Source: Microbaculum marinisediminis
GTDB lineage: Bacteria > Pseudomonadota > Alphaproteobacteria > Rhizobiales > Tepidamorphaceae
Direction: 5' to 3'
DNA length: 64,000 nt
NCBI RefSeq assembly: GCF_025397915.1
Contig: NZ_JALIDZ010000012.1
Location: 62,001 to 126,000 of the forward strand
The position numbers were made by a program, and so were the translations under genes. Position 1 is the stretch's first letter. Every line of letters begins with the position of its first letter. The notes under the pieces are model-generated. The model was not told the DNA's origin, made no database searches, and worked only from the letters and a program-made list of their open reading frames with translations. Shown here in pieces: positions 21,242 through 31,889 of the stretch.

Positions 21242-22171
21242 TCAGCGCGGCTTGGCGAAGGGAATCCCGAGGGCCGCGGGCATCCGGCTGCTGCGCGAGC
21301 CGACCGCCAGCGAGACGATGGCCACGACGTATGGTGCGATCACGAAGAACTGGTAGGGCACCGCGGGAAAGATCGTCTGCAACCTGATCTGGGCCGCGTC
21401 GGCGATGCCGAAGACCAGCGCGACCAGCACGGCCGCCACCGGATTCCAGCGCGCGAAGACCACACAGGCGATGGCCAGGAAGCCACGTCCGGCGGTCATA
21501 TTCTCCACGAACCCCCAAAGGTGCGCGGTCGACAGGAACGCTCCGCCCGCGCCCGCGAATCCGCCGGCGACCAGGACGCACAGGAACCTGACGCGGTCGA
21601 CGTTGATTCCCGCCGAATCCGCGGCAACCGGCGTCTCCCCGACGGCCTTGATGATCACACCGAGCCGCGTGGCCCTGAACATGTAGGCCATGGCAATTGC
21701 GGACGCGACCGCGAGATAGACCAGCGCGTGCTGTCCGAACAGGATGGGCCCGATCACCGGGACGTCCGCGAGCCCGAGAATGTCCAGTTCGCGAAATCCG
21801 GGGATCTTGACCGCCGCCCCCGCCTCGCCGAGCGTCAGCCGATAGCCGTAGCCGGACAGGCCGAGGCCGAGGAACAGGAGGGCGATCCCCGACACGATCT
21901 GCTCGGTCTTGAGGCGCACCACGAAATAGGCATGCACGCCGGACATGGCGACACCGGCCACGATCGCCGCCAGAAGGCCCACCCATGGGCTTCCCGTATA
22001 GACGGCAAACAGGACGGCAACGAAGGCGCCGACCAGCATGATGCCCTCGATGCCCACGTTGATGACTCCGGCCCGCTCCGAGAGCGTCTCGCCGATAGCC
22101 GCGAGCGCGATCGGCGCGGCAAGCCGGATCCCGGCCGCGAGCAGCGAGCTCAGGAATACCACCTCATCCAT
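21242..22171 (-). CDS. ABC importer permease 2 (BMP/nucleoside type)
   Basis: A 309-residue BPD_transp_2-family permease with about eight to nine hydrophobic helices. It has the conserved N-terminus APIALAAIGETLSERAGVINVGIEGIML, a hallmark of the YufQ/NupQ-like permeases paired with BMP binding proteins. The ATG at 22171 lies inside the last codons of the first permease (8-base overlap). It is the final gene of the ten-gene minus-strand operon. The family carries nucleosides, purines and related heterocycles. The substrate here is not known. Confidence 0.88.
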   Translation of the reverse strand: MDEVVFLSSLLAAGIRLAAPIALAAIGETLSERAGVINVGIEGIMLVGAFVAVLFAVYTGSPWVGLLAAIVAGVAMSGVHAYFVVRLKTEQIVSGIALLFLGLGLSGYGYRLTLGEAGAAVKIPGFRELDILGLADVPVIGPILFGQHALVYLAVASAIAMAYMFRATRLGVIIKAVGETPVAADSAGINVDRVRFLCVLVAGGFAGAGGAFLSTAHLWGFVENMTAGRGFLAIACVVFARWNPVAAVLVALVFGIADAAQIRLQTIFPAVPYQFFVIAPYVVAIVSLAVGSRSSRMPAALGIPFAKPR

Positions 22172-23201
22172 TGGCCGATGCCCCCCGCATTCCGCCCGGG
22201 CCGCGGCGCAAGGCGATGCTGGCCGCAAGGAAGATCAGGATGATCGCCCCCTCCATGATGTTGATCAGCGGGAACGGCACAACACCGTTGCGCGCCAGCG
22301 CGCCAAGGCCTGAGTACAGCAACGAGAAACCGAACGCCGACACCGGAACAAGAAGCGGATTGAGGCGAGCGACCAGCGCCACGGCTATCGCGGCGATGCC
22401 GAAGCCCGGCGCGAACCCTTCCTGAAGACGGCCGTACAGTCCGGCCACCTCGACGGCGCCGGCCAGTCCGGCCAGCGCGCCGGATATCACCAGCACCGTC
22501 GCCGCCATGCGCGACGGGCTGATCCCGGCATACTGCGCGGCATGATCGTTCGACCCGACGACCGCGAGCCGGTATCCGAAGCGTCCGCGCATGACGACAA
22601 GCGCCACGACGACCACGGCCAGCACGGCGACGATCAGCCCCGCGTGTATCCGCGTTCCGTCGAATAGGACCGGCAGCCGCAGCGCCTGGTCGATCGCGTC
22701 GGTACGCGGAATGATCCTCATCTTCTCCTGAAGCGGACCGCGTACGAGCCACGACAGCATCTGCACGGCAACATAGTTCAGCATGATCGTCGCGATGATC
22801 TCGTTGCCGCCGAACCGCGCCTTGATGCCCCCGGCGATGCCGCCCCAGACGGCGCCCCCCAGGAATCCGAGGCCCAGGAAGAGCACGATCCCCGCGACGT
22901 TGGCGGGAAGAAGCGGCGCGGCGACAACGGCGACAACGCTGCCGGCGATCAGCTGGCCGTCCATGCCGATGTTGAAGATGCGCGCCTTGAACGCGATTGC
23001 GATGCCAAGCCCCATGATGGTGAGGGGAATCGTGCGCATCAGGGCTTCGAGCAGGCCGGCGCGCGTAAACAGCGCCCGCTCGACGATGCCGTAGACGATA
23101 TCGGCCGGATTGGCGCCGGCGAGCAGGATCGCGATCACGACCATCGCGACGAGAAACGCCACGGCGACCAGCGCCGGTTTCCGCAGTTCGGTCCCCGTCA
23201 T
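22164..23201 (-). CDS. ABC importer permease 1 (BMP/nucleoside type)
   Basis: A 345-residue inner-membrane permease of the YufP/NupP-like group, with the motif PLTIMGLGIAIAFKARIFNIGMDGQ and about ten hydrophobic segments. The ATG at 23201 overlaps the stop of the ATPase gene as ATGA, fixing the start. It pairs with the second permease, the duplicated ATPase and the BMP binding protein to make a complete importer. Confidence 0.9.
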   Translation of the reverse strand: MTGTELRKPALVAVAFLVAMVVIAILLAGANPADIVYGIVERALFTRAGLLEALMRTIPLTIMGLGIAIAFKARIFNIGMDGQLIAGSVVAVVAAPLLPANVAGIVLFLGLGFLGGAVWGGIAGGIKARFGGNEIIATIMLNYVAVQMLSWLVRGPLQEKMRIIPRTDAIDQALRLPVLFDGTRIHAGLIVAVLAVVVVALVVMRGRFGYRLAVVGSNDHAAQYAGISPSRMAATVLVISGALAGLAGAVEVAGLYGRLQEGFAPGFGIAAIAVALVARLNPLLVPVSAFGFSLLYSGLGALARNGVVPFPLINIMEGAIILIFLAASIALRRGPGGMRGASANG

Positions 23202-31293: not shown

Positions 31294-31313
31294 GCGGCCG
31301 GGTTTCCTTGTCT

Positions 31314-31889
31314 TCAGTCTTGCGATGCTGCGCCGTTCGTGCGGACGGCTTCCACGACGAGAACCTGACTGTCGCCGCCGTCCGGGCGCCACGCGCCCTC
31401 GACACCGGCGTCGATGTGCAGGCTGTCGCCCCGGCGCAGCTTGATCGTCTCTCCATCCACGTCCACGGAAACGGAGCCCTTGAGGACGTGATAGAAAACG
31501 GGGTTGGCGGGATGCGGAATCGATGCGGCGGGGTCGGATGGCGTGACGATGCGCGAGGCCATCCGCGGATCCTGCAACGTCCGGACGAGCGGGGTCACGC
31601 CGTCGCCCAGGTCGGCGGCACGTGTGACGTCCGGCTGCGGAGGCTCGGACCGGGCCACCTCGACCAACTCGTCGAGCGTCAGTCCGAGTGAATCGACGAC
31701 CGCGACCATGGTCGCCAGCGCGGGATTTGAGCGCCCCGCCTCCAGCTCGCGAATTGCCCGCGGCGAAAGTCCCGCGGCGTTGGCAAGCTGGTTCTGCGTC
31801 ATCCTTTCACGCTCGCGGGCCTGCCGGACCTGGTGCCCGATACGGCGCAGCTCCCTTGGACCAAATAGCGGTGAAAGTCGGACGGTCAT
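31314..31889 (-). CDS. XRE-type regulator with C-terminal cupin domain (2)
   Basis: A 191-residue protein with an XRE helix-turn-helix (about 16-72; MTQNQLANAAGLSPRAIREL) and a cupin domain (about 120-185; FYHVLKGSVSVDVDGE, GDSLHIDAGVEGAWR). It differs in sequence from the other XRE-cupin protein of this operon, so they are not a recent duplication. It is the first gene of the ten-gene operon and probably regulates it; candidate operators lie just upstream. Confidence 0.9.
   Translation of the reverse strand: MTVRLSPLFGPRELRRIGHQVRQARERERMTQNQLANAAGLSPRAIRELEAGRSNPALATMVAVVDSLGLTLDELVEVARSEPPQPDVTRAADLGDGVTPLVRTLQDPRMASRIVTPSDPAASIPHPANPVFYHVLKGSVSVDVDGETIKLRRGDSLHIDAGVEGAWRPDGGDSQVLVVEAVRTNGAASQD

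What the first reader, a model, noticed from the sequence alone, without database searches (positions are those of the whole stretch)
21242..31889. Ten-gene operon joining a BMP importer, HyuA/B-type enzyme, zinc subunit, amidohydrolase and two regulators
Seen: all genes read one way with overlaps or short gaps. Known: N-methylhydantoin breakdown uses an ATP-dependent HyuA/HyuB enzyme followed by an isochorismatase-fold N-carbamoylsarcosine hydrolase. Inference: this operon imports and degrades a hydantoin-like, creatinine-derived or other cyclic imide compound. The gamma-like zinc subunit, however, points to carboxylase-type relatives, so the reaction may be new.
Basis: partly seen in the sequence, partly recalled or inferred. 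Interest (0 to 1): 0.62.

Follow-up and report, generated by a model that had tools for sequence, protein, structure and literature searches.

The report
Three-subunit hydantoinase-like import and degradation operon
A ten-gene bacterial operon that probably imports a small nitrogen-containing ring compound, opens it with an unusual three-part ATP-using enzyme and strips off its nitrogen with a partner enzyme; the compound is still unknown.

Summary
Ten co-directional, overlapping or abutting genes (31889 to 21242, minus strand) encode an XRE-cupin regulator, HyuA, HyuB, a four-cysteine Acetone_carb_G (gamma) protein, a second XRE-cupin regulator, an isochorismatase-fold amidohydrolase and a BMP-type ABC importer. 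In 76 orthologous loci (HyuB 70-89% identical), gamma follows HyuB in 71 of 71 testable loci and the isochorismatase lies nearby in 58 of 65; the BMP importer lies downstream in 23 of 64. The real unit is HyuA-HyuB-gamma plus amidohydrolase. A published account says hydantoinases are two-subunit enzymes without gamma; here gamma sits with hydantoinase-sized subunits, and distant relatives carry it fused to HyuB. The amidohydrolase clade has an invariant lysine (64 of 64) four residues before its cysteine, where the outside relatives examined have other residues. Neighbours in some other genomes (molybdenum hydroxylases, a Rieske oxygenase, deaminases, a nucleobase-type permease) suggest N-heterocycle breakdown: ATP-driven ring opening, then amide or carbamoyl hydrolysis. 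N-methylhydantoin or creatinine is possible but no test here singles it out; carboxylation is not excluded. Verdict: new variant of a known enzyme kind, substrate unknown.

The parts
31314..31889 (-). XRE1: HTH_3 plus cupin regulator, first gene of the operon
   Evidence: Pfam HTH_3 and Cupin_2; an XRE1/XRE2-like gene sits at this place in 19 of 63 testable orthologous loci
29179..31293 (-). HyuA: ATP-binding (ASKHA-type) activating subunit
   Evidence: Hydant_A_N/Hydantoinase_A/Hydant_A_C; best solved relatives CapA 6yra 393 bits, N-methylhydantoinase 7hk5 374, Apc 370, Acx 336; adjacent to HyuB in 66 of 67 testable loci
27365..29182 (-). HyuB: metal-site subunit (D41, H99, D102, H124)
   Evidence: Hydantoinase_B 415.7 bits; the four metal ligands known from CapB are conserved in at least 97% of 73 orthologues and align by number with CapB
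27075..27368 (-). gamma: four-cysteine zinc-type subunit of the acetone/acetophenone carboxylase gamma family
   Evidence: PF08882 35.5 bits, cut-off 21; phmmer to 5l9w and 5svb; C25 C28 C72 C75 in at least 97% of 72 sequences; present in 71 of 71 testable loci
26501..27070 (-). XRE2: HTH_3 plus cupin regulator
   Evidence: Pfam; 25 of 70 testable loci
25815..26501 (-). Isochorismatase-fold cysteine amidohydrolase; triad D39, K137, C172 and clade-specific K168 (add 10 for the longer 238-aa reading frame)
   Evidence: PF00857 138.1 bits; AlphaFold model pLDDT 92.2 matches RutB, maleamate amidase, BiuH and CSHase; K168 in 64 of 64 clade members, other residues in the outside relatives examined; in 58 of 65 testable loci
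24792..25748 (-). BMP-type periplasmic binding protein
   Evidence: PF02608 186.7 bits; model pLDDT 91.1, best folds Lbp-guanosine, AtzT, PnrA
23198..24778 (-). ABC transporter ATPase with two nucleotide-binding domains
   Evidence: ABC_tran, 2 stretches; GTG start read at 24778
22164..23201 (-). ABC permease 1
   Evidence: BPD_transp_2 133.2 bits
21242..22171 (-). ABC permease 2, last gene
   Evidence: BPD_transp_2 118.1 bits
31916..31945 (-). possible sigma-70 promoter upstream of XRE1
   Evidence: TTGACA-18-CATACT, 10 of 12 matches; not above chance as a class

Best explanation
The operon is a catabolic unit for a small nitrogen heterocycle (a cyclic amide, imide or ureide). The BMP importer brings in the compound or its precursor. 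HyuA uses ATP (as carboxyphosphate or a phospho-lactim) to activate the ring amide, the intermediate passes to the HyuB metal site, and the ring C-N bond is hydrolysed; gamma is a third, zinc-binding subunit that clasps HyuB. The ring-opened acid still carries an amide or carbamoyl group, which the dedicated cysteine amidohydrolase removes, its clade-specific lysine next to the oxyanion hole holding the new carboxylate; NH3 (and CO2 if the group is carbamoyl) is released. The two XRE-cupin proteins probably sense the substrate or product. Shown: gene content, conservation, family membership, invariant active-site residues. Inferred: chemistry, direction, role of gamma and of the lysine. Unknown: the compound.
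For: Core conservation: gamma 71 of 71, HyuA 66 of 67, Iso 58 of 65 testable loci, found by scanning for HyuB alone. Metal tetrad D41/H99/D102/H124, essential in caprolactamase (PMC8453981, passages), is conserved in at least 97% of 73 HyuB; position 41 is Asp as in caprolactamase and acetophenone carboxylase, not the Glu of acetone carboxylase. Cysteine triad and clade lysine. After uncharacterised 3irv, the best folds for Iso are ureidoacrylate amidohydrolase RutB and maleamate amidase, which act on ring-opened heterocycles (PMC5806882, passages). The best-matching BMP folds are solved with guanosine, adenosine or other nucleosides, or belong to AtzT, which binds guanine; the aromatic sandwich of AtzT (Tyr45, Trp194; PMC6834077, passages) maps to F39 and F186. 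Context elsewhere: XDH-like molybdenum hydroxylases in 12 of 76 loci; in Pandoraea terrae a Rieske oxygenase abutting hyuA plus an FAD reductase and a Transp_cyt_pur permease; CDA-fold deaminase in 5 of 76 and TRZ/ATZ-type amidohydrolases in 5 of 76.
Against: No substrate is identified and nothing was assayed. Gamma is otherwise a carboxylase subunit. AMP-ligases in 17 and enoyl-CoA hydratases in 14 of 76 loci would also suit a ketone-carboxylase-like route. The hydroxylases and deaminases are absent from the window operon and from most loci, and the loci are not independent. 7 of 65 testable loci have no Iso within 2.5 kb: L114 has one about 5 kb downstream, L067 has a distant isochorismatase (29% identical) without the lysine. 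One genome (G311) has the lysine-type Iso without the HyuB orthologue. AtzT's Glu165, which recognises guanine, is not kept.
Confidence: 0.5

Rival explanations
1. HyuA-HyuB-gamma is a biotin-free ATP-dependent carboxylase: it carboxylates the imported compound on carbon or ring nitrogen, and the isochorismatase-fold enzyme then cleaves an amide of the carboxylated product, as allophanate-type pathways do.
For: Gamma belongs to the acetone/acetophenone carboxylase gamma family. PMC5214803 (passages) places gamma only in carboxylases, and the order hyuA-hyuB-gamma equals acxABC. AMP-ligase and ECH genes lie beside several loci and beside the haloarchaeal sister.
Against: HyuB is 605 aa with Asp41, unlike acetone carboxylase (Glu; L135). 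There is no second HyuA-like subunit as in Apc. HyuA groups apart from the Acx-like and Apc-like rows. The near-constant amidase partner fits hydrolysis. Bicarbonate is essential even for caprolactamase (PMC8453981, passages), so gamma and carboxyphosphate need not mean a carboxylated end product.
Confidence: 0.22
2. One reading: creatinine or N-methylhydantoin, opened by HyuAB to N-carbamoylsarcosine and cut by an N-carbamoylsarcosine amidohydrolase.
For: Same two enzyme kinds; PDB N-methylhydantoinase 7hk5 is the second-best HyuA match (373.7 bits); CSHase 1nba shares the hydrolase fold and by single sequence scores almost as high as RutB (52.7 against 54.2 bits, rank 6 of 31).
Against: CapA (393 bits) and Apc (370) match HyuA about as well. 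With the clade profile CSHase falls to 55.9 bits, rank 26 of 42, against 89.3 for RutB. Gamma is not described for hydantoinases (PMC5214803, passages). No creatinine- or sarcosine-metabolising gene in the operon; flanks of other loci were read by eye and by selected Pfam runs, not searched for such genes systematically.
Confidence: 0.1
3. Caprolactam-like or 5-oxoproline-like lactamase with a housekeeping or scavenging role, the amidohydrolase acting on an unrelated amide.
For: Caprolactamase is the best NCBIfam match for both subunits. Genes clustering with a CT_C_D protein lie upstream in L104, L105, L108 and L112, and a CT_A_B-type gene in L104, L105 and L112 (Pfam run on L105 only); these are domains of the other bacterial 5-oxoprolinase type (recalled).
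Against: Scores are about half or less of the equivalog cut-offs; a plain lactam would leave no amide for the conserved hydrolase; gamma unexplained.
Confidence: 0.12

Closest known systems
Caprolactamase CapAB (Pseudomonas jessenii, PDB 6yra)
   Same: Best characterised match of HyuA and HyuB; the metal tetrad aligns by number; ATP-dependent ring-opening chemistry
   Different: No gamma subunit; NCBIfam scores far below the equivalog cut-offs
Acetone carboxylase (Acx alpha-beta-gamma)
   Same: Three genes in the order hyuA, hyuB, gamma; gamma family shared
   Different: HyuB is about 170 aa shorter than the 776-aa PDB chain; Asp41 instead of Glu; gamma 97 aa instead of 168; separate branch in the HyuA tree
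Acetophenone carboxylase (Apc)
   Same: gamma with the same four-cysteine pattern; Asp in the metal tetrad
   Different: Apc has a second HyuA-like subunit and an epsilon subunit; no gene in the operon matches either
N-methylhydantoin pathway (HyuAB plus N-carbamoylsarcosine amidohydrolase)
   Same: Logic of ATP-dependent ring opening followed by an isochorismatase-fold hydrolase
   Different: No gamma in the published description of hydantoinases (PMC5214803, passages); the hydrolase here belongs to a clade with a lysine near the oxyanion hole (the CSHase residue there was not read)
RutB, maleamate amidase and BiuH (isochorismatase-fold amidohydrolases of heterocycle breakdown)
   Same: Fold and Asp-Lys-Cys triad
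   Different: 21-26% identical in the fold alignments; residue -4 from the cysteine is Ala in RutB, Thr in NicF and BiuH, Lys here
PnrA/AtzT/BMP binding-protein importers
   Same: Family, fold, two permeases and a double ATPase
   Different: Lacks the guanine-recognising Glu165 of AtzT; ligand unknown

Membership tests
ATP-dependent hydantoinase/lactamase (Hyd, HyuAB) | HyuA and HyuB domains encoded side by side | tested here: met
   Pfam; 66 of 67 testable loci
ATP-dependent hydantoinase/lactamase (Hyd, HyuAB) | HyuB metal tetrad Asp-His-Asp-His | tested here: met
   D41, H99, D102, H124 conserved (CapB reference from PMC8453981, passages)
ATP-dependent hydantoinase/lactamase (Hyd, HyuAB) | Two genes only, no gamma subunit (as PMC5214803 defines it) | tested here: not met
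   gamma in 71 of 71 testable loci
ATP-dependent hydantoinase/lactamase (Hyd, HyuAB) | Equivalog score for a characterised lactamase (CapA, CapB) | tested here: not met
   543.8 and 246.3 bits against cut-offs of 1000
ATP-dependent hydantoinase/lactamase (Hyd, HyuAB) | ATP-dependent hydrolysis of a cyclic amide | not testable with these tools
   needs an enzyme assay
Acetone carboxylase | gamma subunit and gene order alpha-beta-gamma | tested here: met
Acetone carboxylase | Glu at the gating position and a HyuB-type subunit more than 100 aa longer | tested here: not met
   Asp41 and 605 aa; Glu in the Acx-order locus L135; Acx chain is 776 aa
Acetone carboxylase | Groups with acetone carboxylases in a HyuA tree | tested here: not met
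   4 Acx-like rows form their own starred clade; no named reference was in the tree, and only 2 of the 4 (L135, L145) have the order hyuA-hyuB-gamma, the other 2 (L136, L144) hyuB-gamma-hyuA
Acetophenone carboxylase | Second HyuA-like subunit and epsilon | tested here: not met
   no second HyuA in the operon, and no unassigned gene left that could be epsilon
N-methylhydantoin/creatinine pathway | Hydrolase is N-carbamoylsarcosine amidohydrolase | tested here: inconclusive
   same fold; RutB scores slightly higher by sequence and clearly higher by profile
Isochorismatase-fold cysteine amidohydrolase | Asp-Lys-Cys triad and fold | tested here: met
   D39, K137, C172 in 64 of 64; fold
BMP/PnrA-type ABC importer | BMP binding protein, double ATPase, two permeases | tested here: met
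BMP/PnrA-type ABC importer | Nucleoside or nucleobase as ligand | tested here: inconclusive
   aromatic sandwich F39/F186 and N212 kept, Glu165 of AtzT not kept

The most novel reading that the evidence does not exclude
[quoted passage not shown] the lysine-bearing amidohydrolase then cleaves the resulting carbamate or amide. This would be a biotin-free ring-opening step, itself needing no oxygen, for rings hydroxylated by molybdenum hydroxylases or Rieske oxygenases.
Probability: 0.17. Interest if true: 0.75.

Novelty: new variant of a known kind. Interest (0 to 1): 0.45.

Why it matters
This genome alone has 8 Hydant_A_N (HyuA-type) matches, and none could be given a substrate here by homology. 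This clade gives a handle: a fixed third subunit, a near-constant partner enzyme with a diagnostic active-site lysine, and carriers that are named strains, such as Mesorhizobium soli and Salinihabitans flavidus. If gamma is a true third subunit of ring-opening enzymes, the published rule that gamma marks carboxylases needs changing and annotations with it. If it is a carboxylase, a new ring-opening chemistry is at hand.

Tried and rejected
Tried without result: naming the substrate from NCBIfam (all matches of HyuA and HyuB far below cut-offs); from papers (no listed title or abstract opening names a HyuAB-gamma-isochorismatase operon; I read passages of four papers and saw only listings of the rest); from plasmid records (no match of HyuA or Iso at 60% identity or more among 72,556 records); from four of the plasmid Iso relatives at 41-44% identity (no hydantoinase B or gamma is annotated in any of the four stretches, but Salipiger and Martelella have a hydantoinase/oxoprolinase-family gene 5-8 kb away and an ABC importer beside the Iso gene, so a looser link of the two enzyme kinds exists outside this clade; not followed up); from the BMP fold (only the family). 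Considered and rejected: a plain acetone or acetophenone carboxylase (tree, length, Asp41, missing subunits); chance adjacency (76 loci); gamma as a stray small zinc protein (71 of 71, plus HyuB-gamma fusions with all four cysteines in L132, L133, L134, L137, L138, L140, L141, L146; of the two fusions given to Pfam, L146 shows gamma above its cut-off and L141 shows Hydantoinase_B alone). Considered and kept open: indoleacetate-type lactam opening (a gamma-lactamase named in PMC5214803, passages) and purine-, pyrimidine- or pyridone-type substrates. The molybdenum-hydroxylase association was set against background: of the 58 genomes I used the three that carry the clade (9 matches in 5.1 Mb, 16 in 5.4 Mb, 10 in 2.4 Mb), which makes about 2.5 expected in roughly 0.9 Mb of flanks (1,314,188 bases in all, less about 5.2 kb of core per locus); 12 loci were seen. 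This is only a rough sum: one gene can give two matches, several loci are close relatives, and they show about six arrangements.

Rows dropped: L127 (HyuB 36%) from all clade counts; the scan itself kept the best 80 of 83 confirmed stretches, merged to 77 loci, and finds only contigs that hold one of two short peptide patterns; loci too short were left out of each denominator; sequences of unusual length were left out of the alignments (64 Iso, 25 BMP, 72 gamma, 64 HyuA, 73 HyuB, window included); 18 of the 64 HyuA were put in the tree, 39 of 64 Iso and 22 of 25 BMP into the alignments used for structure prediction.
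Full report
What is there. Ten genes on the minus strand, 31889 to 21242, read one way with overlaps of 1-8 nt or gaps of 4-66 nt. In order: XRE-cupin regulator 1, HyuA, HyuB, a 97-residue four-cysteine protein, XRE-cupin regulator 2, an isochorismatase-fold hydrolase, and a BMP-type importer (binding protein, double ATPase, two permeases). Pfam supports each part above a cut-off. The small protein belongs to Acetone_carb_G (35.5 bits, cut-off 21) and its best solved relatives are the gamma-type subunits of acetophenone and acetone carboxylase. 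The genome has 8 Hydant_A_N (HyuA-type) matches, the window's included, but one Acetone_carb_G match. A same-genus genome (G290, whose contig has the same length, 132005, as the Tepidamorphus sp. contig of L113) carries the whole operon, HyuB 89% identical; another (G289, 85% complete) shows no close HyuB (best 263 bits against 1245 in G290). The genus name rests on that match of contigs.

Conservation. I aligned nine HyuB orthologues and scanned the collection of 84,980 species genomes for them by two short peptide patterns: 83 confirmed stretches, the best 80 kept, 77 loci; 76 encode HyuB at 70-89% identity (best segment) and the last 36%. Because the search used HyuB only, its neighbours were free to vary. 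With short contigs left out, HyuA is adjacent in 66 of 67, gamma in 71 of 71, the isochorismatase within 2.5 kb in 58 of 65, XRE2 in 25 of 70, an XRE1-like gene in 19 of 63, and the BMP protein downstream in 23 of 64. The 7 loci without a nearby isochorismatase gene are L063, L067, L069, L070, L106, L114 and L118; L114 has it about 5 kb downstream and L067 has a distant one (29% identical). The unit is therefore HyuA-HyuB-gamma-Iso; regulators and importer are optional. In a sample of the class, 8 of 289 genomes (this one included) carry gamma together with a HyuB at 63% identity or more. The BMP importer seems to have been joined more than once: order BMP-ATPase-permeases in most loci that have it, ATPase-permeases-BMP in L106, and a divergent upstream BMP copy in L079.

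Active sites. HyuB keeps Asp41, His99, Asp102 and His124, the metal ligands whose loss inactivates caprolactamase (PMC8453981, passages), in at least 97% of 73 sequences. Acetone carboxylase has Glu at the first position; an Acx-order locus (L135) shows that Glu, while this clade and the eight HyuB-gamma fusions examined show Asp. Gamma keeps C25, C28, C72 and C75 in at least 97% of 72 sequences, the pattern given for Apc gamma (C22, C25, C75, C78; PMC5214803, passages). The hydrolase keeps the triad D39, K137, C172. It also carries a lysine four residues before the cysteine (K168) in 64 of 64 clade sequences. At this position BiuH and NicF have Thr (whose main-chain N is named as part of the oxyanion hole in PMC5806882, passages), RutB has Ala, and seven relatives outside the clade, taken from six loci, have Leu, Ala, Met, Val or Thr. 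A lysine there could hold the carboxylate that ring opening creates; that is inference. The lysine also occurs in one Iso without neighbouring HyuB (L049).

Place in the family. PMC5214803 (passages) states that hydantoinases consist of two genes and lack orthologues of gamma, and that gamma marks acetone and acetophenone carboxylases. In a HyuA tree of 40 rows the window clade is one group (support 100/99). Its sister is a haloarchaeal plasmid HyuA (Halorientalis marina, 100/100), whose 722-residue HyuB carries a C-terminal Acetone_carb_G domain. Other HyuB-gamma fusions branch nearby with weak support (83/60). The 7 other HyuA of this genome, four Acx-like rows and four Apc-order rows fall in separate clades. 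No named reference sequences were in the tree: Apc rows were labelled by gene order; of the Acx-like rows two have the order hyuA-hyuB-gamma (L135, L145) and two hyuB-gamma-hyuA (L136, L144). The tool warned of long branches. The fusions are good evidence that gamma works with HyuB.

Neighbours elsewhere. XDH-like molybdenum hydroxylases lie within the fetched flanks of 12 of 76 loci. In Mesorhizobium soli (L068) the molybdenum subunit (fused to an FAD domain) and the [2Fe-2S] subunit stand upstream of hyuA on the same strand. In Pandoraea terrae (L074) a Rieske oxygenase gene ends within about 65 nt of the first hyuA match, after an FAD reductase and a cytosine/purine/uracil/allantoin-type permease. 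Swapping a molybdenum hydroxylase for a Rieske oxygenase is known in purine breakdown of Klebsiella (recalled, not looked up). CDA-fold deaminases follow Iso in 5 gammaproteobacterial loci, and TRZ/ATZ-type amidohydrolases lie near 5 others (representatives were classified by profile, the rest by tblastn). AMP-ligases (17 of 76) and enoyl-CoA hydratases (14 of 76) also occur. TRAP-type DctM genes occur in 11 of 76 loci, 6 of which also have BMP; branched-chain-type (L067, L082, L121, read by eye) and NMT1-type (L114) importers occur in loci without BMP. This fits a hydroxylated N-heterocycle being opened, stripped of nitrogen and passed on as an acid. Against it: no single hydroxylase or deaminase is constant, and expected background is not zero (about 2.5 molybdenum-hydroxylase loci by my rough sum).

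Importer. The model of the BMP protein (pLDDT 91.1) matches Lbp-guanosine, AtzT and PnrA best. By my own counting on the alignment, the AtzT sandwich residues Tyr45 and Trp194 (PMC6834077, passages) align with F39 and F186, and Asn218 with N212; the guanine-recognising Glu165 aligns with V157. A planar ring ligand is plausible, guanine itself less so.

Mechanism and verdict. Most likely: ATP-dependent ring opening by HyuA-HyuB-gamma, then amide or carbamoyl hydrolysis by the lysine-type cysteine amidohydrolase (0.5). A carboxylase reading keeps 0.22, a plain lactamase 0.12 and creatinine/N-methylhydantoin 0.10. It works like the N-methylhydantoin pathway but fails one published membership feature of hydantoinases (no gamma) and two of acetone carboxylase (Glu, subunit length), so I file it under neither. 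No listed title or abstract opening in my ten searches names such an operon; that library lacks most subscription journals.

Noticed in passing
L049:9994-10671 (genome G311, same order): A lysine-type isochorismatase 61% identical to the window's stands near urease genes in a 98% complete genome that has no HyuB orthologue (best 158 bits), so the hydrolase may also act without this HyuAB-gamma.
   Followed up: partly
L146:11108-13276 and L132, L133, L134, L137, L138, L140, L141: HyuB-gamma fusion proteins of about 700-810 residues, all with four cysteines and the metal tetrad; no isochorismatase relative was found by tblastn in L132-L134, L137, L138, L140 and L141, and none is annotated in L146.
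   Followed up: partly
L106:9376-21118 (Defluviicoccus MAG that also holds L070): HyuB and gamma without a nearby HyuA or isochorismatase, next to a rearranged BMP importer, Rieske ring-hydroxylating oxygenase subunits and a DctM-like TRAP gene.
   Followed up: partly
L104, L105, L108, L112: Genes clustering with CT_C_D (all four) and CT_A_B (not L108) carboxyltransferase-domain proteins, an enolase-superfamily protein and a BKACE enzyme upstream of hyuA; Pfam was run on L105 only.
   Followed up: no
L148 and L149 (Salipiger and Martelella plasmids): Isochorismatase relatives (41-42% identical, without the lysine) beside an ABC importer, with a hydantoinase/oxoprolinase-family gene 5-8 kb away; a looser link between the two enzyme kinds outside this clade.
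   Followed up: no
L097: A contig labelled Actinomycetota carries the core with HyuB 72% identical to the alphaproteobacterial one: gene transfer or a binning error.
   Followed up: no
window 32713-33043 and 33626-36049: tRNA-Asp and tRNA-Val genes and a lon-like protease gene (named by eye) lie upstream of the operon; no integrase was looked for.
   Followed up: no
L075, L086, L089, L093, L099: A CDA-fold deaminase gene follows the isochorismatase gene in gammaproteobacterial loci; L086, L093 and L099 also have an Asp/Glu/hydantoin racemase-type gene.
   Followed up: partly
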